From: Rhizobium sp. N324
Lineage (GTDB): Bacteria; Pseudomonadota; Alphaproteobacteria; Rhizobiales; Rhizobiaceae
Length of the DNA stretch: 64,000 bases
Assembly (NCBI RefSeq): GCF_001664485.1
Contig: NZ_CP013633.1
Location: 383,146 to 447,145, forward strand
Direction: 5' to 3'
The notes under the pieces are model-generated. The model searched no databases, had not been told where the DNA came from, and worked only from the letters and a program-made list of their open reading frames with translations. Shown here one piece after another: positions 31,081 through 44,940 of this stretch. The position numbers and the translations under genes were made by a program. The number at the start of each line of letters is the position of its first letter. Position 1 is the stretch's first letter.

Positions 31081-31425
31081 CGAGTTTTATTGTGGGAAAG
31101 CAAAAGTAAGAAGCCGGTCTCGCGCGCGTTTATCCTTTCATCAATCAAATGTTTCATCCGTAAACAAGCTTCATCGAGGTAACCCGCTTCGCTTAACCGG
31201 CCTGACGGCCGGTGCAGGCGCTGCTAGGGGGAGCGGCTGTATCGTCGTTTCGGCCAAGAAACTGCGCGGGAAGTTCGGCGGCATCCTCAGCCTTATCACC
31301 TTGGCATTTACGCTATCTTTTTAGGCGAGGCGGAAACCGCTGACGCGGTCCTCCATCTCTTGGTCGAGACAGTGTGACCTGCCACTGAATTTTCATCCGG
31401 CGTCTGACCTGCCACTGAGAATTTC
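31081..31425. other. spacer with two tandem copies of the 28-base repeat
   Basis: No gene recognised. The repeat TGACCTGCCACTGA... occurs at 31375 and, shortened, at 31404, immediately left of composite B. Confidence 0.5.
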
Positions 31426-31567
31426 TGAACCGCTCCCAAACGTTGGACCACCGGATGCTAGAGTTTTCCGGCTTCATTCAGGGAGGCGGGCTGGTTGCGC
31501 CTCCCGAATTCACCAACGAGATCGGCACCTTGTTGCCGATCGCACCATGAGGTCTTTCCTCATTGTA

Positions 31568-32100
31568 CAACAGGGCGACGGAACACCCACGGGACCGAGG
31601 TTCGCGAGCTTTTATATCCGTGGCATCCCTGGTCTGGGCGGCTTATCCATATCCATGGATTGGTGGACAAGGGGTCTGCTGTGTTCCGCTGCAGCCTTTC
31701 GGGTTCGACGTCATGTCGGTTGCTTGAGGTCCCGGTGTGGATGTTTGACCGAACACTGAGTGCGCGGTGGTTGGCCTTACCAATTGCGTATGCCGATTTA
31801 GCTTGCCTGCTTGCTTTGGCAAAGTTGCTGGAAGAGGCAGGCACTCCCTCACAGGGCGCGGATATGAGCGCAGCATTGATCTCTCACGAAACGAGTCGGG
31901 GAGATGTCCATGCCACGCCAGTTTACGACATATCAGTTCGATCTGTTCTCGAGTGCCCACAGCGGGAAGACGCCAGCGATGCCGCAATGGCAGACGTTGC
32001 CGGAAGGAACACAACAGGCGTTGACGGCGCTCATCGTGCGGCTGCTCGTCGACCACTCAAACGGCGAGAGCGCCTCCCAGTCGAAGGAGGCCAATCATGA
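31568..32100 (+). CDS. DUF5372-like protein, copy B (start unclear)
   Basis: Same as the copy at 17904-18436, with the same lack of a standard start inside the element. It overlaps the following small gene. Confidence 0.45.
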
Positions 32101-32107
32101 TGCATGA
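31910..32107 (+). CDS. small recombinase-associated protein, copy B
   Basis: Translation identical to the protein at 18246-18443; start [13 protein letters not shown] with GGGGAG upstream. It overlaps the recombinase by 11 bases. Confidence 0.6.
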
Positions 32108-34160
32108 GAAGATCAGCGCCCACCATCTTGAACGCAAGGCCATTCTGTACGTCCGACAATCGTCGGCTCATCAGGTTCTGCACAATCGCGAAAGTAGCGC
32201 GCTTCAATACGCCATGCGCGACCGCTTGAAAGCACTTGGCTGGGCGCAGATCGAAACAGTCGATGAAGATCTAGGCCGTTCGGCCGCCGGAGGCGTAACC
32301 CGCGCCGGTTTCGACCGGATGGTTGCCGAGGTCTGCCTTGGAAAGGTTGGAGCGGTTGCAGCACGAGAGGTATCGCGCTTTGCCCGCAACAGCCGGGATT
32401 GGCAACAGCTCATTGAGATGTGCCGCGTCGTCGACACCGTTCTGATCGACCAGGAAGCGGTCTATGCACCGCGCCAGGGTAATGACCGCCTGCTTTTGGG
32501 GCTGAAGGGTAGCCTCAACGAGTATGAGCTGGATCTCTTGCGCCAACGCTCCCTTTCCGCCCGCTATGAGAAGGCGCGCCGCGGTGAGCTTGTCGTTACT
32601 GTCCCGATTGGATTCTTGAAGGCCGGCGACAGGATCGAGAAGGATCCCGACCGGCGCATCCAGGAGGCCATTGCGCTCGTCTTCAACAAGGTTGCCGAAC
32701 TCGGCAGTGCCAGGCAGGCGCTACTATGGTTCCTCGAGCAAGGCCTGGACCTGCCGGTCAGGCGCGCCAACGGCGAGGTCACCTGGCGCAGGCCCAATTA
32801 CGCAACCATCCATCGGATGATTGATAATCCGATCTACGGAGGCGCGTATGCTTATGGTAAGAGTCGCTCCATGCCGGGATACGATGGCCGATCCGGAATT
32901 CGCCGCAAGGCGCGCGCTGAATGGCTGGCCTTGATCCCGGATGCCCACGAAGGCTACGTCAGTTGGGAACGGGCGGAGGAGATCCGCAAAATGGTCAGCA
33001 ATAATGTGCCTGCCAGCCGACATCACGGGGCGCCGAAGCATGGCGACGCTCTGCTTGCCGGCCTTTTCCGTTGTAAGAGGTGCGGGCGGAAGCTGACGGT
33101 CCGCTACACTGGAAACAATCATAACATTCCGCGCTATTCCTGCTGGCGTGGCCTGCTCGACAACGGTGAGCCTCGCTGCATCGCCTTCGGTGGCCTGCGG
33201 GTCGACGATGCGATCGAGGAGATGCTTCTTGGCGTCGTTGAACCAGGAGCCATTGCTGCTAGCGCTGAAGCAGAACGCAACATAGCCAACCGTCGTGATC
33301 AAGTTCACGACGCCCTTCAGCGAGATCTCGAGGCGGCGAGCTTTGCGGCCGACCGGGCATTCCGGCAATATGACACTGCTGATCCCGAGAACCGGCTGGT
33401 GGCATCGGAGCTCGAGGCGCGCTGGAACAAGGCTCTCATTCGCGTTGGCGAGATCGAGAATAAGATTGCCAGCCACAAAGCCGCGATACCGCAAGTGTCG
33501 TCGTATTCCATGTTGGATATAGCTGCTCTTGCCGGGGACCTTCGTGCCGTCTGGTCGGCGCCAACAACCGATACCAGGCTTAAAAAACGGATCGTGCGCA
33601 CGGTCATTCATGAAGTGATCGCCGATCTCGACGATGTGGCTTCAGAGATCGTCCTCGTCATCCATTGGGCTGGTGGAGTTCACACCGAACTGCGACTGCC
33701 GAAACGACGTCGTGGACAAAGAAACGCGACCCCCGACGACCTCATTGAGGCAGTACGGCAGCTCGTGCTCATTGCCAATGACGACCTTATTGCCGGGATA
33801 CTCAATCGCAATGGATTGGCCACCGGCAATGGCAATCGCTGGACAAGGGAACGTGTCACAGCACTCCGGTCGTACCGCAAGATCCCGGTCTACCGGCCGC
33901 AGTCAGACGGGATAGAGCCTTGGCTCAACCTGGGAAAGGCGGCGAAGCTACTTGGCGTTACGCCAAAAACATTGAGAATCGCCGCCGAAACAGGTGAGAT
34001 CGAGGGCGTGCATCCCTTGCCGGCAGGCCCATGGATCTTTAGTCGCTCAAAGCTTGAACTCCCGCAAGCAAAACAGCTCGTCGATCGAGTACGACAGAAC
34101 CCCAGACACCCCGCGGGATCGCCTCAAAATCAAGGAAACCTATTTACTTCAACAACATAG
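32097..34160 (+). CDS. large serine recombinase, copy B
   Basis: 687 residues, translation identical to copy A: catalytic YVRQSS, zinc ribbon and C-terminal HTH all present. With an inverted copy C at 40778-42841, the 5.1 kb between them carries the peptide-export operon. Confidence 0.9.
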
Positions 34161-34189
34161 AAAGATGGGCGTTATGAAACAGGATTGTA

Positions 34190-34918
34190 GTATCTACGCC
34201 AATCCTCCATCTTTTCGCGGGCATCCGCAAGGGTCAGGAACCAATCCTGGTTCAGGCATTCTGCACGGAAGCGGCCATTGAACGCTTCGATGAAAGCATT
34301 ATCAGTCGGCTTGCCGGGGCGTGAGAAGTCCAACGTCACACCCTTGGAATAGGCCCACAGGTCCAAGTCGCGCGACACGAACTCGGTCCCTTGGTCGACA
34401 CGGATCGTTTTCGGATAGCCGGCTTTTTGGCACACCGTTCAAGGGTTTGCACAACGTCTTCGCCTCTATAGCTATGACGCGGATCAAGCACCGGCACGTA
34501 GCGCGAGAAGGTGTCGACCACCGTCAGCACGCGCAGTTTCTTACCCGTTGCGAGTTGGTCGTGAACGAAGTCCATCGCCCAGACGTCGTTGGGTCCGACG
34601 GCCATGTGCCGATCCTCGCGAAGCTTGGCCTTTACCCTCCGCTTCGGTGTCTTGTTCCGCAACGGTAGCCCCAAGTCCCTGTAAATGCGGTAGGTTCGCT
34701 TGATGTTGGTGCCCCAACCCTCGCGTTCCAACAGCACATGCACGCGGCGATAGCCGTACCGCACACGGATCTCGCAGATCTCGCGAATACGACGTTCCAG
34801 ACCGGCCTGATCAGCGCGGCGAGAGGTATAGTGGTGAGTTGATCGATCGAAGTTCAACGCTCCACAAGCACGTCGGATCGAGATCGCCCAATCGCAGCAC
34901 ATGCCTTTCACCATCTCC
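34190..34918 (-). pseudogene. IS3-family orfB, frameshifted (copy B)
   Basis: Same two-frame arrangement as in copy A (34336-34914 and 34190-34435), with the same single-base loss. It cannot give an intact transposase. Confidence 0.82.
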
Positions 34919-36544: not shown

Positions 36545-36560
36545 TGTCGTGCTTGCGACA
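36545..36560 (+). promoter_or_regulatory. NifA-type activator site of the peptide operon
   Basis: TGTCGTGCTTGCGACA matches TGT-N10-ACA exactly. It lies 94 bases upstream of the -24 element, nearly the same spacing as at nifH. Confidence 0.85.
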
Positions 36561-36653
36561 GCGTGATGTGCGGTTTGGCACGTCTCGGCGCTCTAGGGCA
36601 GCCATTGAATAACATACAGAACAGTTTTCTGATGCTTTTCGCTCCTTCTGCAT

Positions 36654-36668
36654 TGGCACGAATCTTGA
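36654..36668 (+). promoter_or_regulatory. sigma54 promoter of the peptide operon
   Basis: TGGCACGAATCTTGA has a perfect -24 element and the same TTGA -12 variant as nifH. The start codon of the peptide gene follows 80 bases later. Confidence 0.8.
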
Positions 36669-36747
36669 ACCTTTTTGTTGCGCGCCGCTAGGAGCTCCCA
36701 ACGGGGGCCTTGGCATCTTCTCAATCCAGCTCTGAACGGAGACACCA

Positions 36748-36873
36748 ATGATGAACAACATGGCAGCCTATCGTGTAACCGAATTAACCCCTCAAGAAGC
36801 AGCTGAAACCTCCGGAGGTTGGTATTTTTGGGTTTACTTGTTTTTGCGACGTTACGGACACTTGTTTGGTTGA
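36748..36873 (+). CDS. double-glycine leader peptide precursor (bacteriocin-like)
   Basis: A 41-codon gene. The leader of 24 residues ends VTELTPQEAAETSGG, a classical double-glycine leader (ELxxxE...GG) cut by C39 peptidases. The predicted 17-residue product is WYFWVYLFLRRYGHLFG: eight aromatic residues, two arginines and one histidine, no cysteine, so it should be cationic, amphipathic and membrane-active. GGAGA precedes the ATG; a second ATG follows directly. The next two genes encode an adaptor and a C39 exporter, 18 and about 1,230 bases downstream. The whole set lies behind a NifA-type promoter, so expression in bacteroids is expected. I know of no named family for the mature peptide. 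Confidence 0.85.
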   Translation: MMNNMAAYRVTELTPQEAAETSGGWYFWVYLFLRRYGHLFG

Positions 36874-36891
36874 TAAGCGAGCTGGCTCTCG

Positions 36892-38073
36892 ATGGCTCCT
36901 AGTGACTACAGACTAGCAGTTCCCCTTTCTGCTGAAACGGCCAGCTGCACCGCAGAAAGCATACTGGCGCGACGATCAGGACGATCCTTGAGCATTTATA
37001 GGGCGATCTTGCTCTTCGTCGCCGCGGCATTTGGCTCACTGCCACTCGTTACCATACCGGTCTCCATGCAGAGTGTCGGTACTATTCGCCCGATCGTGGA
37101 GAAGACGCCCCTGATAGCGCCCGTCTCCGGACGCATCTCCCGTGTCCTTGCCTTTGAGAACGATGTCGTTGCTAAGGGGAAGGAAATAATCGCCTTTGAC
37201 GATCATGTAATCGAGGAAAAGCTCAGCGGGGTTTTAGCCGACATTCATGCCAAGAGCGATCTTGCCCATGACTTCCAAACGCTCATTTCTTCCGGCGCAA
37301 GGCTCAGCGTCTCGCCCCCCCTCCAAACCGAATCCGCGACGGCTGAAAGGGTGCATTTTCTCAACTTGCTGCGCGAGAACCAAAATGCGCGCAGTAACGC
37401 CGCGGCGGAACTCGACCGCGCAAAGCGACTTGTCTCGGCTGCTGCGGCGCCGGCGAAGACCGTTGACGAGAAGGCTTTCGCTCTCCAAAATATCGAGGTC
37501 CAAGGCGAGATCCTCGTGCGACGCAAAACCGCTGATTGGAACCAGAAGCTCCTTGATGCTAACCTGCGCTTAAAGGAACTCACGGCCACCTTGCATCAGC
37601 TCGAGCACGAACGGGACCTGCACCGCATCCGCGCCCCAGTATCGGGTGCTCTCGAGCAGTTCTCCGGCCTCGCGCACGGAAGCTACGTGCAGAGCGGGCA
37701 AACCGTTGGTTGGATCTCGCCGAACGACGATCTGGTGGCGGAAATCTACGTCTCCCCCAACGACATTGGCTTTGTGCAGCCTGGTCAGCCGGTGCGGCTC
37801 CAAGTGGATGCCTTTAACTACAACCAATGGGGTGTCATCAAAGCAAGGGTGGTCGAGGTGGCGCAGGACTTCACTCTGCATGACGGGAACCCGGTCTTCA
37901 AGGTCCAGTGCGCGCTCTCTCGCAGCGAACTCGCGCTGAAAAGCGGGGCCATCGGCCACCTGAAGAAAGGCATGACCGTGCGGGCTCGCTTTCTGTTGGC
38001 CAATCGCACTCTCCTGCAACTGCTCTACGACGAGGCAGACGATTGGCTCAACCCGATGCTGGCGGGGCGCTAA
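36892..38073 (+). CDS. HlyD-family membrane fusion protein for peptide export
   Basis: A 393-residue periplasmic adaptor linking the ABC exporter to an outer-membrane channel. A membrane segment lies at about residues 40-60 (YRAILLFVAAAFGSLPLVTI). The lipoyl/barrel-sandwich halves are PLIAPVSGRISRVLAFENDV near residue 75 and HRIRAPVSGALEQFSGLAHG near residue 245, with coiled coil between (about 120-230). The beta-barrel part YVSPNDIGFVQPGQPVRLQV follows. The start has only a weak ribosome site, 18 bases after the peptide stop, so coupling is likely. No TolC gene is present; a chromosomal one would serve. Confidence 0.9.
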   Translation: MAPSDYRLAVPLSAETASCTAESILARRSGRSLSIYRAILLFVAAAFGSLPLVTIPVSMQSVGTIRPIVEKTPLIAPVSGRISRVLAFENDVVAKGKEIIAFDDHVIEEKLSGVLADIHAKSDLAHDFQTLISSGARLSVSPPLQTESATAERVHFLNLLRENQNARSNAAAELDRAKRLVSAAAAPAKTVDEKAFALQNIEVQGEILVRRKTADWNQKLLDANLRLKELTATLHQLEHERDLHRIRAPVSGALEQFSGLAHGSYVQSGQTVGWISPNDDLVAEIYVSPNDIGFVQPGQPVRLQVDAFNYNQWGVIKARVVEVAQDFTLHDGNPVFKVQCALSRSELALKSGAIGHLKKGMTVRARFLLANRTLLQLLYDEADDWLNPMLAGR

Positions 38074-38100
38074 TATTGTCCCAACAGCCAGCGAGCCTCC

Positions 38101-40248
38101 ATGTCGAGTAAGGCCATTAAGTTCAAACAGCGTGACATCACGGATTGCGGCGCCGCCAGCCTCGCATCTGTCGCAGCCTTCTATGGCTACAAGTTGCCAT
38201 TGGCGCGCATCCGCCAGTATGCGTCGACCGACCGCTCCGGTACGAGTGTGCTGGGGCTCACGGAAGCGGCGCAGAAGCTGGGCTTCATCGCGAAAGGCGT
38301 CAAAGGTGGCTTCGACAGCCTGTACAAGATCCCCAAGCCCGCTATCGCGCACGTCGTCAAGGAGGACCTGCACCATTTCGTAGTGGTCCATGCGATCGAC
38401 GCCAAGTGGGTCATCGTCATGGACCCGGCCTTGGGCGAAATCTGCAAAGTGCCGCATCAGGAATTCATGGAGCAATGGACCGGCGTTCTGGTTTTGCTGG
38501 TTCCGGCAGACACATTCAATCGTCGAGACGAGACCACGTCGCCCCTCGCCCGATTCGCCCGCCTACTCGCGCCACACCGCACGGTGATGGCGCAGGCTCT
38601 CGTCGGCGCTCTTGTGACGACCGTCCTCAGTCTCTCGACGGCGATCTACGTTCAGAAGATCGTTGATCACGTGATCCCAGCGGGAAACCGCAACCTGCTC
38701 AACTTGATGAGCATCGCAATGCTGCTGATCCTAGCGATACAGATCCTGATCAACCTCCTAAGAGGCCGACTCGTCCTGCAGACGGGGCAGAAGATCGACG
38801 TATGCTTGATCCTCGGTTATTACAATCACATCCTGGCCCTGCCCCAGAAGTTCTTCGATAGCATGCGCATGGGAGAAATCGTGTCGCGCATGAACGACGC
38901 TGTGAAAATCAGGAGCTTCCTGAACGACGTTTCGATAAACATGTTTGTTGACATTTTAATGATACTGTTCTCGTTCGGAATGATGTTCATCTATTCCTGG
39001 AATATTGCTTTGATCGTGGCGCTCGCCATTCCAATGTACATCCTGGTATATTGGGCCATCAATCGGATGAATCGAAATCTCCAACGAGTCATCATGGAAA
39101 ATGACGCCAAACTCGAGGCGCAACTGGTAGAATCACTCGGAGCTGTCTCCACCATTAAGACTTCCGGCGTCGAGAGCTTCGCAAACTTCAAAATGGAGAC
39201 CCGCTTCGTAAAGATGCTGCATTCCGTCTACAGCTCCGGGCTGATCTCAATCTGCGGCGACAACGCCTCGGCGTTGCTGTCGGTCCTGTTCACCATCGTG
39301 CTGATGTGGTTTGGAACCACGCTTGCGCTCGAACAGGCCGTCACGCCCGGCGAATTGCTGTCCTGCTATACGTTGCTTGGCTATATCACCCGGCCGGTCG
39401 CCCGCCTGATCCAGACCAACCGGATCGTTCAAGACGCGTTTATCGCGGCGGATAGACTTTTCGAGATCTTTGAACTGGAGTCGGCAAGCAGCAGCGGCAT
39501 CGATGCTACGAAGACCGATCTCGGAGATATTCGCCTGGAGAACGTCACATTCCGCTATGGCGCGCAGGCGGAGGTTTTCAGCGATCTAAGCGTCTCCTTT
39601 CGCCAAGGAGAGTTGACGGCCGTCGTGGGTGAGAGCGGCTCGGGCAAAAGCACCCTTGCGGCTCTGCTGCAGAATGTCTACCAGCTTGAGGATGGATGCA
39701 TTCGGATCGGCCAATATGCCCTCCAGGATTTCTCGAGCGCATCACTGCACAAGGTCATGGCTGCAGTACCGCAATCGATAGACGTCTTCTCCGGTTCCGT
39801 GATCGAGAACATCGCCCTGGGCGAGTTCGAACCGGAGTTCGATAAGATCGTACGCATCTGTGATCGAATAGGACTGCGGGAGTGCATCGAGCGCTGGCCC
39901 GGGCGGTTCCAGGCCCATCTGGGCGAGAACGGGGTTCGCCTCTCCGGAGGTGAGAAGCAGCGCCTCGCATTGGCTCGGGCCCTGTACCGGGATCCCGACG
40001 TTCTAATCCTTGACGAAGCGACCTCCTCTCTGGACTCAGCAGCCGAAGAATTTGTGCTGCGGGTTGTTGAGGATCTGTCTCGCGCTGGGAAGACCATCAT
40101 AGTCATCACTCATCGGTTGAGCACCGTTCGTGGGGCGGACAATATTGTGGTCCTGGACAAGGGGCGGGTCATTGAGGAGGGAAAGCACGCTGACCTAGTG
40201 AGAACTGATGGCCCTTACGCTCGATTATGGCGGGCGCCAAGGTCGTGA
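38101..40248 (+). CDS. C39-peptidase ABC exporter (leader cleavage and secretion)
   Basis: A 715-residue peptidase-containing ABC transporter that removes double-glycine leaders and exports the peptide. The N-terminal C39 domain has QRDITDCGAASLASV (Gln10 and catalytic Cys16), HHFVVVHAI (catalytic His) and VMDPALGE (Asp). Six membrane segments span about 160-450. The ATPase domain has Walker A GESGSGKST (~508), signature LSGGEKQR (~613) and Walker B VLILDEATSSLD (~635). All catalytic residues are present, so it should be active. It starts 27 bases after the hlyD-like gene. Composite C begins about 110 bases after its stop, so genes once lying beyond could have been lost. Confidence 0.94.
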   Translation: MSSKAIKFKQRDITDCGAASLASVAAFYGYKLPLARIRQYASTDRSGTSVLGLTEAAQKLGFIAKGVKGGFDSLYKIPKPAIAHVVKEDLHHFVVVHAIDAKWVIVMDPALGEICKVPHQEFMEQWTGVLVLLVPADTFNRRDETTSPLARFARLLAPHRTVMAQALVGALVTTVLSLSTAIYVQKIVDHVIPAGNRNLLNLMSIAMLLILAIQILINLLRGRLVLQTGQKIDVCLILGYYNHILALPQKFFDSMRMGEIVSRMNDAVKIRSFLNDVSINMFVDILMILFSFGMMFIYSWNIALIVALAIPMYILVYWAINRMNRNLQRVIMENDAKLEAQLVESLGAVSTIKTSGVESFANFKMETRFVKMLHSVYSSGLISICGDNASALLSVLFTIVLMWFGTTLALEQAVTPGELLSCYTLLGYITRPVARLIQTNRIVQDAFIAADRLFEIFELESASSSGIDATKTDLGDIRLENVTFRYGAQAEVFSDLSVSFRQGELTAVVGESGSGKSTLAALLQNVYQLEDGCIRIGQYALQDFSSASLHKVMAAVPQSIDVFSGSVIENIALGEFEPEFDKIVRICDRIGLRECIERWPGRFQAHLGENGVRLSGGEKQRLALARALYRDPDVLILDEATSSLDSAAEEFVLRVVEDLSRAGKTIIVITHRLSTVRGADNIVVLDKGRVIEEGKHADLVRTDGPYARLWRAPRS

Positions 40249-40356: not shown

Positions 40357-40748
40357 TGGGCGATGGACTTCGTTCACGACCAACTCGCAACGGGTAAGAA
40401 ACTGCGCGTGCTGACGGTGGTCGACACCTTCTCGCGCTACGTGCCGGTGCTTGATCCGCGTCATAGCTATAGAGGCGAAGACGTTGTGCAAACCCTTGAA
40501 CGGTGTGCCAAAAAGCCGGCTATCCGAAAACGATCCGTGTCGACCAAGGGACCGAGTTCGTGTCGCGCGACTTGGACCTGTGGGCCTATTCCAAGGGTGT
40601 GACGTTGGACTTCTCACGCCCCGGCAAGCCGACTGATAATGCTTTCATCGAAGCGTTCAATGGCCGCTTCCGTGCAGAATGCCTGAACCAGGATTGGTTC
40701 CTGACCCTTGCGGATGCCCGCGAAAAGATGGAGGATTGGCGTAGATAC
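40357..40748 (+). pseudogene. IS3-family orfB fragment (copy C)
   Basis: Carries WAMDFVHDQLATGKKLRVLT and, after the shared 1-base loss, VCQKAGYPKTIRVDQGTEFV and AFIEAFNGRFRAECLN. The N-terminal part is missing and the C-terminus is cut by the recombinase element. Confidence 0.8.
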
Positions 40749-40777
40749 TACAATCCTGTTTCATAACGCCCATCTTT

Positions 40778-42841
40778 CTATGTTGTTGAAGTAAATAGGT
40801 TTCCTTGATTTTGAGGCGATCCCGCGGGGTGTCTGGGGTTCTGTCGTACTCGATCGACGAGCTGTTTTGCTTGCGGGAGTTCAAGCTTTGAGCGACTAAA
40901 GATCCATGGGCCTGCCGGCAAGGGATGCACGCCCTCGATCTCACCTGTTTCGGCGGCGATTCTCAATGTTTTTGGCGTAACGCCAAGTAGCTTCGCCGCC
41001 TTTCCCAGGTTGAGCCAAGGCTCTATCCCGTCTGACTGCGGCCGGTAGACCGGGATCTTGCGGTACGACCGGAGTGCTGTGACACGTTCCCTTGTCCAGC
41101 GATTGCCATTGCCGGTGGCCAATCCATTGCGATTGAGTATCCCGGCAATAAGGTCGTCATTGGCAATGAGCACGAGCTGCCGTACTGCCTCAATGAGGTC
41201 GTCGGGGGTCGCGTTTCTTTGTCCACGACGTCGTTTCGGCAGTCGCAGTTCGGTGTGAACTCCACCAGCCCAATGGATGACGAGGACGATCTCTGAAGCC
41301 ACATCGTCGAGATCGGCGATCACTTCATGAATGACCGTGCGCACGATCCGTTTTTTAAGCCTGGTATCGGTTGTTGGCGCCGACCAGACGGCACGAAGGT
41401 CCCCGGCAAGAGCAGCTATATCCAACATGGAATACGACGACACTTGCGGTATCGCGGCTTTGTGGCTGGCAATCTTATTCTCGATCTCGCCAACGCGAAT
41501 GAGAGCCTTGTTCCAGCGCGCCTCGAGCTCCGATGCCACCAGCCGGTTCTCGGGATCAGCAGTGTCATATTGCCGGAATGCCCGGTCGGCCGCAAAGCTC
41601 GCCGCCTCGAGATCTCGCTGAAGGGCGTCGTGAACTTGATCACGACGGTTGGCTATGTTGCGTTCTGCTTCAGCGCTAGCAGCAATGGCTCCTGGTTCAA
41701 CGACGCCAAGAAGCATCTCCTCGATCGCATCGTCGACCCGCAGGCCACCGAAGGCGATGCAGCGAGGCTCACCGTTGTCGAGCAGGCCACGCCAGCAGGA
41801 ATAGCGCGGAATGTTATGATTGTTTCCAGTGTAGCGGACCGTCAGCTTCCGCCCGCACCTCTTACAACGGAAAAGGCCGGCAAGCAGAGCGTCGCCATGC
41901 TTCGGCGCCCCGTGATGTCGGCTGGCAGGCACATTATTGCTGACCATTTTGCGGATCTCCTCCGCCCGTTCCCAACTGACGTAGCCTTCGTGGGCATCCG
42001 GGATCAAGGCCAGCCATTCAGCGCGCGCCTTGCGGCGAATTCCGGATCGGCCATCGTATCCCGGCATGGAGCGACTCTTACCATAAGCATACGCGCCTCC
42101 GTAGATCGGATTATCAATCATCCGATGGATGGTTGCGTAATTGGGCCTGCGCCAGGTGACCTCGCCGTTGGCGCGCCTGACCGGCAGGTCCAGGCCTTGC
42201 TCGAGGAACCATAGTAGCGCCTGCCTGGCACTGCCGAGTTCGGCAACCTTGTTGAAGACGAGCGCAATGGCCTCCTGGATGCGCCGGTCGGGATCCTTCT
42301 CGATCCTGTCGCCGGCCTTCAAGAATCCAATCGGGACAGTAACGACAAGCTCACCGCGGCGCGCCTTCTCATAGCGGGCGGAAAGGGAGCGTTGGCGCAA
42401 GAGATCCAGCTCATACTCGTTGAGGCTACCCTTCAGCCCCAAAAGCAGGCGGTCATTACCCTGGCGCGGTGCATAGACCGCTTCCTGGTCGATCAGAACG
42501 GTGTCGACGACGCGGCACATCTCAATGAGCTGTTGCCAATCCCGGCTGTTGCGGGCAAAGCGCGATACCTCTCGTGCTGCAACCGCTCCAACCTTTCCAA
42601 GGCAGACCTCGGCAACCATCCGGTCGAAACCGGCGCGGGTTACGCCTCCGGCGGCCGAACGGCCTAGATCTTCATCGACTGTTTCGATCTGCGCCCAGCC
42701 AAGTGCTTTCAAGCGGTCGCGCATGGCGTATTGAAGCGCGCTACTTTCGCGATTGTGCAGAACCTGATGAGCCGACGATTGTCGGACGTACAGAATGGCC
42801 TTGCGTTCAAGATGGTGGGCGCTGATCTTCTCATGCATCAT
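40778..42841 (-). CDS. large serine recombinase, copy C
   Basis: 687 residues, translation identical to copies A and B with all catalytic and zinc-binding residues. No mutation separates the three copies, which implies recent spread or ongoing gene conversion. Confidence 0.9.
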
Positions 42842-43028
42842 GATTGGCCTCCTTCGACTGGGAGGCGCTCTCGCCGTTTGAGTGGTCGACGAGCAGCCGC
42901 ACGATGAGCGCCGTCAACGCCTGTTGTGTTCCTTCCGGCAACGTCTGCCATTGCGGCATCGCTGGCGTCTTCCCGCTGTGGGCACTCGAGAACAGATCGA
43001 ACTGATATGTCGTAAACTGGCGTGGCAT
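42831..43028 (-). CDS. small recombinase-associated protein, copy C
   Basis: Translation identical to the copies at 18246 and 31910; overlaps the recombinase start by 11 bases. Confidence 0.6.
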
Positions 43029-43370
43029 GGACATCTCCCCGACTCGTTTCGTGAGAGATCAATGCTGCGCTCATATCCGCGCCCTGTGAGGGAGTGCCTG
43101 CCTCTTCCAGCAACTTTGCCAAAGCAAGCAGGCAAGCTAAATCGGCATACGCAATTGGTAAGGCCAACCACCGCGCACTCAGTGTTCGGTCAAACATCCA
43201 CACCGGGACCTCAAGCAACCGACATGACGTCGAACCCGAAAGGCTGCAGCGGAACACAGCAGACCCCTTGTCCACCAATCCATGGATATGGATAAGCCGC
43301 CCAGACCAGGGATGCCACGGATATAAAAGCTCGCGAACCTCGGTCCCGTGGGTGTTCCGTCGCCCTGTTG
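42838..43370 (-). CDS. DUF5372-like protein, copy C (start unclear)
   Basis: Same as copies A and B, including the missing standard start codon inside the element. It overlaps the small gene in another frame. Confidence 0.45.
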
Positions 43371-43512
43371 TACAATGAGGAAAGACCTCATGGTGCGATC
43401 GGCAACAAGGTGCCGATCTCGTTGGTGAATTCGGGAGGCGCAACCAGCCCGCCTCCCTGAATGAAGCCGGAAAACTCTAGCATCCGGTGGTCCAACGTTT
43501 GGGAGCGGTTCA

Positions 43513-43563
43513 GAAATTCTCAGTGGCAGGTCAGACGCCGGATGAAAATTCAGTGGCAGGTCA
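43513..43563 (-). repeat. tandem 28-base repeats beside composite C
   Basis: Two copies of TGACCTGCCACTGA... on the minus strand, as beside composite B. Beside A only the outer copy remains and 22 unrelated bases follow it. The origin is unknown; it may be the end of another mobile element. Confidence 0.65.
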
Positions 43564-43828: not shown

Positions 43829-44314
43829 TTAAACGCGCGCTACATCTGAATAGGTCTTAATTGTTGTTAAGCCATTATCGACCAGGCCAGTTCCCGCCTC
43901 GGCGAGCTTTTGGAGGTTGTCGAAGCCAAATCGATGTACGTCGCGGAGCGTCTTCGAGAGTACTACGAGCCGCCCCGCCGTGAGTAATATCCGACCGAAT
44001 CCCTCATGGTTCACAGTCAACACCGGTGACGCCATCAGTCCGGACTGCTCCTCTATAGCAAGTGCTACGGCGGCATAGAAGATCTCAAGCCGCCACTGCA
44101 CCTCTAGGTCAGGTCCCCCGATGAGAGGAATCGCCCTACGCTGCTGCCTCGTCACGATGAAATCACAGAGCAAATCGGTGTCCGATTTCTCTTGCCACAA
44201 TTCAAAGGTGTCTTGAGCACGCATCAGACGCAAGAGGCACTTAATGAAAGGCGTGGCGAGAGCATCTTTCTCATCTAATCGAGCATTGTTGGGGACAGGG
44301 GTGACGTTTGACAT
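43829..44314 (-). CDS. NifX-associated protein (DUF269), second copy
   Basis: A 161-residue paralogue of the protein at 7733-8218, clearly diverged but with all family blocks (LATPFIKCLLRLMRAQD, GFGRILLTAGRLVVLSKTLR, VHRFGFDNLQKLAEAG). The frame is intact and has AGGAGG before the ATG. It stands downstream of a dead nifH copy whose sigma54 promoter and NifA site survive, so it may still be transcribed in bacteroids. Unlike the first copy, no DUF683 or fdxB follows; composite C lies beyond. Confidence 0.9.
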   Translation of the reverse strand: MSNVTPVPNNARLDEKDALATPFIKCLLRLMRAQDTFELWQEKSDTDLLCDFIVTRQQRRAIPLIGGPDLEVQWRLEIFYAAVALAIEEQSGLMASPVLTVNHEGFGRILLTAGRLVVLSKTLRDVHRFGFDNLQKLAEAGTGLVDNGLTTIKTYSDVARV

Positions 44315-44589
44315 CAGTTAAAATCCTCCTGAGTGTTGGATGCGGTTTGACTAAGGGCCACACCCGCTTCCGGTAACACCATCCCTTAAAATGGTGCGGC
44401 AGATGGGACCTGTGGCGACGCAACTTGGCCCGGACGAATGACATGGCCCCTCGAAACGGGGCGGCCGCAACAACAACGGCAAGCGGCGGGCAACGCTGGC
44501 GGGCTTGACGAAAAGCGCTTCACAAGCGAGATTCCCGTCGCGATAGTCCAGTGGCGGTAGGTTTCGCCGCGAACTCCACCCTCAAGCAA
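44315..44589. other. spacer between nifH relic and DUF269 copy 2
   Basis: No match to nifD, nifK, nifE, nifN or nifX could be seen. The sequence may be the scrambled join left when the rest of a second nif operon was deleted. Confidence 0.4.
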
Positions 44590-44754
44590 CCTATTCGCCG
44601 CCAGGTGTAAAACCGTGTCTCGGGCTTTCGAATTGAGGATCAGGCGGGGGGTGGAATCAGCTTTTCGAGGTCGACAAGGGCAGTGAGAGTATCTTGAGAG
44701 GCCGTGTACTTGCCGATACCCCCTTTTCCGTGCGAACTGATGCAGACCTGCCAT
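44590..44754 (-). pseudogene. nifH relic of a second nif locus
   Basis: The minus strand shows frameshifted pieces of NifH: GKGGIGKYTASQDTLTALVD in one frame and KADSTPRLILNSKARDTVLH in the next, equivalent to [20 protein letters not shown] and [19 protein letters not shown] of the intact protein. Only about the first 55 codons remain, with two shifts. Sequence drift from nifH at 11887 shows that it is not a recent copy. Confidence 0.82.
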
Positions 44755-44839
44755 GTATTTTCCCTTCAAGGTTCAAATCGACTTCGACCGGACGCCACAC
44801 GTTCCACCAGGCGATTGCCCGCCGCGTAGTTCTGGGAGT

Positions 44840-44854
44840 TCAAGACTCATGCCA
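44840..44854 (-). promoter_or_regulatory. sigma54 promoter surviving in front of the nifH relic
   Basis: The minus strand reads TGGCATGAGTCTTGA, with the same TTGA -12 variant as nifH and 86 bases upstream of the relic start. Confidence 0.72.
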
Positions 44855-44940
44855 GTCTCCTCCGCTGAGGTCCGGAACACGGCATCTGTATTGTTTCCAG
44901 CTTCTTAGCTAGCCCATGAAGAATTGATCGAGGACAACGT

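What the first reader, a model, noticed from the sequence alone, without database searches (positions are those of the whole stretch)
36545..40248. NifA-type operon for a processed, exported 17-residue aromatic peptide
Seen: an exact TGT-N10-ACA site, then a -24/-12 promoter 94 bases on, then a 41-codon gene with a double-glycine leader (TELTPQEAAETSGG), a HlyD-type adaptor and an ABC exporter whose C39 peptidase keeps Gln, Cys, His and Asp. The predicted product WYFWVYLFLRRYGHLFG is nearly half aromatic and cationic. Known: C39 exporters cut after GG and secrete bacteriocins or signals. Inference: bacteroids secrete this peptide when NifA is active. It could kill competing rhizobia in the nodule, signal between bacteroids, or act on plant membranes. 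I know of no described NifA-controlled peptide exporter of this kind.
Basis: partly seen in the sequence, partly recalled or inferred. Interest (0 to 1): 0.95.

Follow-up and report, generated by a model that had tools for sequence, protein, structure and literature searches.

The report
Nitrogen-fixation-switched rhizobial peptide export system
A bean-nodulating Rhizobium symbiosis plasmid carries a tiny double-glycine peptide gene beside genes for a predicted cut-and-export machine; related units occur in five genera of root-nodule bacteria, most of them behind the same predicted nitrogen-fixation (NifA) switch, so these bacteria likely release small, fast-changing peptides inside nodules.

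Summary
The three-gene unit (41-aa double-glycine precursor, HlyD-type adaptor, C39 ABC exporter) is at least 99% identical in 35 plasmid records; orthologous units occur in Rhizobium, Sinorhizobium, Mesorhizobium, Microvirga and Bradyrhizobium. In Rhizobium, 30 of 148 genomes have it, 27 of them with nifH or nifD over cut-off. The leader is conserved, the cores are not: most are 24-39-residue hydrophobic stretches, a few are Pro/Cys-rich; the window's 17-mer is an in-frame shortened version. A NifA site plus sigma-54 promoter precedes 19 of 26 units compared (shuffles: mean 0.01). A sigma-54 site lies 60-140 nt before 35 of 51 precursors (control ORFs 1.2%), including 12 of 17 not linked to an exporter. 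Most carry the rare -12 A of the R. etli nifH promoter. Best reading: a NifA/RpoN-controlled set of exported peptides working like class II microcins. NifA dependence and export are predicted, not measured; the target is open, and no immunity gene is conserved. The R. etli exporter operon is already in print (Sci Rep 2021) as aiding growth with yeast, read as detoxification; the passages I read mention neither precursor nor NifA.

The parts
36545..36560 (+). NifA upstream activator site TGT-N10-ACA (predicted)
   Evidence: exact match; with a sigma-54 site 60-160 nt downstream in 19 of 26 loci, shuffles mean 0.01
36653..36668 (+). RpoN -24/-12 promoter TTGGCACGAATCTTGA with A at -12 (predicted)
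   Evidence: same -12 A as the nifH promoter in this window
36748..36873 (+). 41-aa precursor: 24-aa double-glycine leader and 17-aa core WYFWVYLFLRRYGHLFG; = RHE_RS34940 / WP_004676277.1 of R. etli CFN42
   Evidence: stop codon in the same frame as the R. altiplani 30-aa core
36892..38073 (+). HlyD-type periplasmic adaptor (RefSeq starts it 96 bases further in)
   Evidence: PF13437 4.7e-17; dN/dS 0.20-0.57 in 11 comparisons
38101..40248 (+). C39-peptidase ABC exporter (PCAT type)
   Evidence: PF03412, PF00664, PF00005; TIGR01193; best PDB match 4ry2, 489 bits; dN/dS 0.08-0.23 in 11 comparisons, one of them partial; catalytic residues 38 of 38

Best explanation
This is a short-peptide secretion unit, predicted to be switched on by NifA and RpoN in nitrogen-fixing cells, in which a C39 exporter likely cuts a 41-residue precursor after Gly-Gly and pumps out a 17-residue peptide. 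Shown by sequence: the three genes, the conserved leader with variable cores, intact catalytic residues, purifying selection on the exporter, and a NifA-site/sigma-54 pair before most orthologous units compared, in five genera, and before some unlinked precursor genes. Inferred: low oxygen in the nodule activates NifA; the symbiotic RpoN2 may read the -12 A promoter, as PMC3538637 suggests as possible for M. loti; the exporter with HlyD and a TolC-type channel encoded elsewhere releases the peptide into the symbiosome space. Inferred with less certainty: the peptides act on membranes of other bacteria, much as class II microcins do, and the fast-changing cores are the result of that antagonism. 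Action on plant membranes or on the host is the main alternative target.
For: Orthologues and distribution: 107 plasmid records match, 74 over at least 80% of the 4-kb query, 35 at >=99%; HlyD in 80 plasmid records; 30 of 148 Rhizobium genomes, 22 with full nifH and, of the other 8 (all drafts), 5 with nifD over cut-off and 3 with a weaker nifD-family match only. Leader family: linked precursor at 89 of 90 adaptor loci; M1, Y8, G23, G24 invariant in the 23 aligned; 43 homologues among the 7987 candidates scored, the 27 that carry an organism name all from Rhizobium, Sinorhizobium/Ensifer, Mesorhizobium, Bradyrhizobium or Microvirga. Regulation: 19 of 26 loci with UAS plus promoter against 0.01 in shuffles; sigma-54 at -60 to -140 in 35 of 51 precursors and within 900 nt in 49 of 51 against 12 and 158 of 1007 control ORFs; for the 17 unlinked precursors 12 and 16, with the NifA site in 7; -12 A in 18 of 25 promoters against 9 of 186 in the literature (PMC3538637). 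Selection: exporter dN/dS 0.08-0.23. Microcin-like: 2 of 10 relatives pass TIGR03949, class IIb bacteriocin. NifA-type conditions: nifH and fixA promoters are induced in the R. etli-yeast co-culture in which the operon had an effect (PMC8479133).
Against: No transcript, NifA-mutant or peptide measurement was available. The published R. etli NifA-RpoN regulon paper (AEM 76:4510) is not held, so I could not check whether RHE_PD00332/333 is listed. 7 of 26 loci lack the exact pair, L069 lacks both sites, and the pair of L076 is weak and distant; of 9 near-copies left out of that test, L009 also lacks the UAS. Two unlinked precursors (L088, L105) have no near promoter, and 10 of 17 have no UAS pair. 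L071 has only a degenerate linked leader. No conserved immunity gene. The window's own precursor matches no curated bacteriocin model. The 17-mer may be a decaying remnant: relatives have longer cores, some with two precursors, and the adaptor is broken in one Rhizobium genome (G781). Adaptor dN/dS reaches 0.57 in one comparison.
Confidence: 0.72

Rival explanations
1. The exporter is mainly a detoxification pump for foreign amphiphiles such as yeast sophorosides, and the small ORF is incidental. This is the published proposal for RHE_PD00332/333.
For: The operon cloned with its own promoter (plasmid AD2) partly restored growth of a pA-/pD- R. etli strain in mixed biofilm with yeast; RHE_PD00332 alone (AD3) did not (PMC8479133, sections read).
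Against: A C39 peptidase with all catalytic residues in 38 of 38 exporters and a linked double-glycine precursor at 89 of 90 adaptor loci point to a peptide cargo. Unlinked precursor genes often share the promoter type. The clone may also have carried the precursor gene.
Confidence: 0.1
2. The peptide acts on the plant host or on bacteroid development, as a secreted effector-like peptide, not on rival bacteria.
For: Predicted NifA control places expression in fixing cells enclosed by host membrane; at least 27 of 30 Rhizobium carriers are nif-positive; no conserved immunity gene.
Against: Some relatives match the class IIb bacteriocin model, and the unit occurs in symbionts of many different legumes.
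Confidence: 0.3
3. It is a quorum-type peptide pheromone system like ComC/ComAB.
For: The exporter is related to ComA (424 bits), and older annotation calls the adaptor a peptide pheromone/bacteriocin exporter (PMC8479133).
Against: No downstream gene is conserved between genera, so no linked receptor or response regulator; up to six precursor matches per record, with very different cores.
Confidence: 0.08
4. In symbiovar phaseoli the unit is a decaying relic: one precursor was lost and the other shortened to a core without function.
For: R. altiplani and a 90%-related genome have 30-residue cores, and the latter two precursors; the adaptor is split in G781.
Against: The cassette is at 99% or more in 35 plasmid records, with exporter dN/dS 0.12-0.23 in four near relatives; the leader has no non-synonymous change in two comparisons and the stop codon is kept.
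Confidence: 0.15

Closest known systems
Class II microcin secretion (colicin V, CvaA/CvaB)
   Same: Double-glycine leader, C39 ABC exporter plus HlyD-type adaptor, small peptide (the CvaAB comparison is recalled; general class II microcin features read in passages of PMC7680869)
   Different: No linked immunity gene conserved, whereas PMC7680869 says all microcin clusters carry one; predicted NifA/RpoN control; unlinked precursor genes, 12 of 17 with a near sigma-54 site
PCAT1 / ComA peptidase-containing exporters
   Same: Whole-length sequence match, 489 and 424 bits; Gln, Cys, His, Asp present
   Different: Gram-negative, with a linked periplasmic adaptor
R. etli CFN42 operon RHE_PD00332/RHE_PD00333 (PMC8479133)
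   Same: Matches by replicon, gene order and description the p42d locus that is 99.8% identical to the window; locus tags not matched one to one by a tool (one search failed)
   Different: Published reading is sophoroside detoxification in yeast co-culture; the main text holds no 'NifA', 'leader' or 'precursor'
Class IIb bacteriocin, lactobin A/cerein 7B family (TIGR03949)
   Same: 2 of 10 relatives tested pass the cut-off, 5 more match below it; 23 of 90 loci have two linked precursors
   Different: The window's precursor has no hit
NifA-RpoN regulon of M. loti R7A (PMC3538637)
   Same: UAS plus -24/-12 promoter; the ccpR promoter with the same A at -12 depends on NifA2 in nodules
   Different: No peptide exporter found in the passages I read

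Membership tests
Peptidase-containing (C39) ABC exporter | C39 peptidase + transmembrane + ATPase domains in one chain | tested here: met
   Pfam; TIGR01193 524.8 vs cut-off 523.85 bits
Peptidase-containing (C39) ABC exporter | Catalytic Cys/His/Asp and oxyanion Gln | tested here: met
   Q10, C16, H92, D108 in 38 of 38 distinct exporters
Class II (double-glycine) bacteriocin/microcin | Double-glycine leader next to its exporter | tested here: met
   89 of 90 adaptor loci
Class II (double-glycine) bacteriocin/microcin | Linked immunity gene | tested here: not met
   20 loci, 2.5 kb downstream of the exporter, ORFs of 40 codons or more at E<=1e-6: only 3 of 148 between-genus locus pairs share anything (a precursor, a transposase-like ORF, one unclear 52-aa match), nothing recurrent; upstream, the example printed for each sharing pair is mostly a precursor, in or out of frame, or a transposase-like ORF. 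Very divergent or unlinked immunity genes are not excluded
Class II (double-glycine) bacteriocin/microcin | Killing activity | not testable with these tools
   needs synthetic peptide or culture assay
Class IIb bacteriocin TIGR03949 | Score above curated cut-off | tested here: inconclusive
   window precursor no hit; 2 of 10 relatives pass, 5 more match below cut-off
NifA-RpoN regulon | TGT-N10-ACA site about 100 nt before a -24/-12 promoter | tested here: met
NifA-RpoN regulon | Consensus GC at -12 | tested here: not met
   GA in the window and A in 18 of 25 loci; the same deviation in R. etli and M. loti nifH (PMC3538637)
NifA-RpoN regulon | Expression lost in nifA or rpoN mutants | not testable with these tools
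   published R. etli regulon paper not held
Peptide pheromone system (ComC/ComAB type) | Linked receptor/response regulator | tested here: not met
   nothing recurrent downstream in 20 loci; no such pair next to the exporter in the annotation tables (a response regulator lies over 3 kb away)
NHLP / Nif11-type RiPP | Precursor matches a leader model; linked modification enzymes | tested here: not met
   no NCBIfam or Pfam hit to the window precursor; nothing recurrent downstream

The most novel reading that the evidence does not exclude
Alphaproteobacterial rhizobia of five genera carry a nitrogen-fixation-controlled peptide regulon: dispersed double-glycine precursor genes, many with their own NifA/RpoN promoter of the rare -12 A type, feed one C39 exporter, so that fixing bacteroids secrete lineage-specific cocktails of small membrane-active peptides, a bacterial counterpart to the plant's nodule peptides.
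Probability: 0.45. Interest if true: 0.9.

Novelty: new variant of a known kind. Interest (0 to 1): 0.74.

Why it matters
Bacteroids are usually described as exporters of ammonia that receive plant peptides. A set of bacterial peptides made only when nitrogenase is made would give them a way to act on nodule rivals, on each other or on the host at that stage. It would bear on who wins mixed nodules, which matters for inoculants. It also gives a simple rule (leader motif plus -12 A NifA promoter) for finding such peptides, which annotations mostly leave as 'hypothetical protein' or miss, and it offers a different reading of the published yeast co-culture phenotype of R. etli.

Tried and rejected
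Frameshift idea: the +1 frame after GG is open (VFLGLLVFATLRTLVW...), so I asked whether the 17-mer is a frameshifted longer core. DNA alignment with R. altiplani and others puts the 17-mer's stop codon in the same frame as the 30-residue core's stop (HYFFD* / GHLFG*), so it is an in-frame shortening; rejected. The extra 3-base indel in relatives lies after the stop and says nothing.

Amphipathic helix: the hydrophobic moment of the 17-mer is reached by 26% of composition shuffles; not claimed.

More precursors in the window's own genome: none found at E<=1.

First immunity-gene test: the list was cut at 25 rows, too short to carry the claim; I ran it again in full for both flanks, and the report rests on that. 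Row choice in the promoter test: one search found 35 distinct upstream stretches; one search used 26 of them. Of the 9 left out as near-copies, 7 have the pair, L009 lacks the UAS and L001 has too little upstream sequence. In one search ten profile hits without the leader pattern were dropped (counted), and the looser pattern anchored at least two L074 copies 90 nt too far upstream, so its 35 of 51 is if anything low. The control uses any ATG frame of 40 codons, many of them not genes.

Literature for prior description: searches (held open-access library only) showed no NifA-controlled double-glycine peptide. Papers seen: PMC8479133 sections 7 and 10 and passages; PMC6421345 section 17 and passages; passages only of PMC3538637, PMC9611204, PMC11387232, PMC4999443, PMC6515984, PMC13098155, PMC8277102, PMC7680869, PMC6927923, PMC2275737, PMC4417242, PMC4085339 and PMC11218460. 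The bean-bacteroid RNA-seq paper (PMC6421345) does not name this operon in the passages seen; its tables could not be opened. PMC2275737 describes another rhizobial bacteriocin-type exporter (bltDE) with large predicted substrates; I take it not to be this system.

Samples across family and order found the adaptor in 4 of 297 and 4 of 397 genomes, the same four, the window's own included; such evenly drawn samples say little beyond rarity. Fisher tests treat related loci as independent and, for nif, count 8 genomes by a second gene that was not sought in exporter-negative genomes, so I give them no weight.
Full report
What is there. The window is G000:C4:383146-447145 and matches bean-symbiont plasmids of Rhizobium phaseoli/etli type at 99% or more. 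At 36545-40248 it carries, in order, a TGT-N10-ACA site, a -24/-12 site, a 41-codon ORF with a good ribosome-binding site, an HlyD-type adaptor and a C39-peptidase ABC exporter. The same three genes are annotated in R. etli CFN42 p42d as RHE_RS34940 (hypothetical), RHE_RS31080 and RHE_RS31085.

Conservation. A 4-kb query matches 107 plasmid records, 74 of them over at least 80% of its length. The adaptor alone is found by tblastn in 80 records: Rhizobium 45, Bradyrhizobium 20, Sinorhizobium 5, Mesorhizobium 4, Microvirga 1 and five more distant ones. Within the genus, 30 of 148 genomes have the adaptor at E<=1e-60. nifH at E<=1e-100 is in 57 of 148, among them 22 of those 30. The other 8, all drafts, have a nifD-family match: 5 over the nifD cut-off, 3 only below it, at a score like the second nif gene of the window's own genome. 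The exporter is under purifying selection (dN/dS 0.08-0.23; adaptor 0.20-0.57). Gln10, Cys16, His92 and Asp108 are invariant in 38 distinct exporters.

The peptide family. A leader profile finds a linked precursor at 89 of 90 fetched adaptor loci, 23 of them with two; the exception, L071, has a degenerate leader. Many of the 90 are near-copies. The leader is constant (M-x-x-D-M-[SA]-A-Y-x-V-T-E-L-T-P-E-E-A-x-x-T-S-G-G; M1, Y8, G23 and G24 invariant in 23 sequences); the cores are not. Of 24 cores examined, 18 are 24-39-residue hydrophobic stretches and 17 have Trp in the first four residues; a few are Pro/Cys-rich. Two of ten relatives tested pass the class IIb bacteriocin model TIGR03949 and five more match below its cut-off; the window's precursor does not match it. 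A profile search of 5.8 billion proteins, with 7987 candidates scored, gave 43 homologues; the 27 with an organism name are all from the five rhizobial genera. The window's genome holds one precursor only. Its 17-mer is an in-frame shortened relative of the R. altiplani 30-mer: leader and stop codon align in frame. Within symbiovar phaseoli the leader has no amino-acid change in two comparisons, while the core differs from the window's by 7 non-synonymous and 1 synonymous change in strain IE4803, and by 1 and 1 in each of two others.

Regulation. In 1.3 kb upstream of the adaptor, 19 of 26 loci have an exact TGT-N10-ACA 60-160 nt before a sigma-54 site scoring at least 10 of 12; 200 dinucleotide shuffles give a mean of 0.01 loci and a maximum of 1. 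The pair is seen in all five genera. The seven without it are L020, L022, L077, L069, L044, L071 and L072; six of them keep the sigma-54 site, L069 has neither; the pair of L076 is weak and distant. In the window, with a threshold of 9, only two other places have a pair at 60-160 nt spacing: the nifH promoter (12870, minus) and a nifH remnant before the nifX-associated gene (44855, minus); a fourth, weaker one has 191 nt. Taking precursors one by one, 35 of 51 have a sigma-54 site at -60 to -140 and 49 of 51 within 900 nt, 31 with the NifA site; 1007 control ORFs in the same loci give 12 and 158. Of the 51, 34 are linked to an exporter and 17 are not; the unlinked ones give 12, 16 and 7. One of these lies about 450 kb from the exporter on the Rhizobium sp. 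T1473 plasmid and has the full pair; another on that plasmid (L088) and one in R. leguminosarum (L105) have no near promoter. The -12 base is A in 18 of 25 loci and C in 7 (L069 left out for its low score), and A in 28 of the 35 near promoters. PMC3538637 (passages) reports A at -12 in only 9 of 186 predicted Rhizobiales RpoN promoters, but in the nifH promoters of R. etli and M. loti; ccpR with the same A depends on NifA2 in nodules; and it suggests that RpoN2 may be the factor that reads such promoters. These counts are over related sequences and are not independent events.

What it most likely does. Shown: genes, leader, catalytic residues, selection, promoter footprint. Inferred: NifA and RpoN drive it at low oxygen in nodules; the C39 domain cuts after Gly-Gly; the peptide leaves through HlyD and a TolC-type channel encoded elsewhere. 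Less certain: the target. Hydrophobic, variable cores and the TIGR03949 resemblance favour membrane-active antagonism of the microcin type. Downstream of the exporter, only 3 of 148 between-genus pairs among 20 loci share any ORF, and none of these recurs; this argues against a classical bacteriocin with linked immunity and leaves room for the plant membrane as target.

Prior work. PMC8479133 (sections 7 and 10 and passages) cloned the R. etli operon RHE_PD00332/333, which I equate with this locus by replicon, description and order. The operon partly restored growth of a pA-/pD- strain in biofilm with yeast, RHE_PD00332 alone did not; nifH and fixA promoters were induced in the co-culture. The authors proposed sophoroside detoxification. 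A peptide made under NifA-active, low-oxygen conditions fits those data as well and is testable.

Novelty. Exporter type and double-glycine peptides are known kinds; a dispersed, NifA/RpoN-controlled peptide family across rhizobial genera was not found in my searches of an open-access library that lacks many journals, including the R. etli regulon paper.

Noticed in passing
31375-34581 and 40357-43563: Perfect 3207-nt inverted repeats, each with a 687-aa serine recombinase ORF, flank the cassette; recombination between them could flip the 5.8 kb segment.
   Followed up: partly
43829-44855 (minus strand): A nifH remnant with its own NifA-site/sigma-54 pair precedes the nifX-associated DUF269 gene, as if a duplicated nifH promoter had been put to new use.
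   Followed up: partly
L074 1734, 3704, 5683: Bradyrhizobium japonicum S11L plasmid has three copies of the promoter-plus-precursor unit; IS3 (ISRj2-type) transposases lie between them and two copies have altered ends.
   Followed up: partly
L044 5357; L028 9376 and 10740; L071 minus 9627; L117 1178: Precursors with the same leader, sigma-54 site upstream, but Pro/Cys-rich cores of quite different nature, perhaps a second class of cargo.
   Followed up: partly
L068 (G781) and L072: The adaptor is split in one Rhizobium genome and the exporter reading frame has a stop in B. elkanii USDA 94, so the system is lost in places.
   Followed up: no
36892-36987: RefSeq starts the adaptor 96 bases downstream of the conserved ATG; Sinorhizobium similarity covers the longer form.
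   Followed up: no
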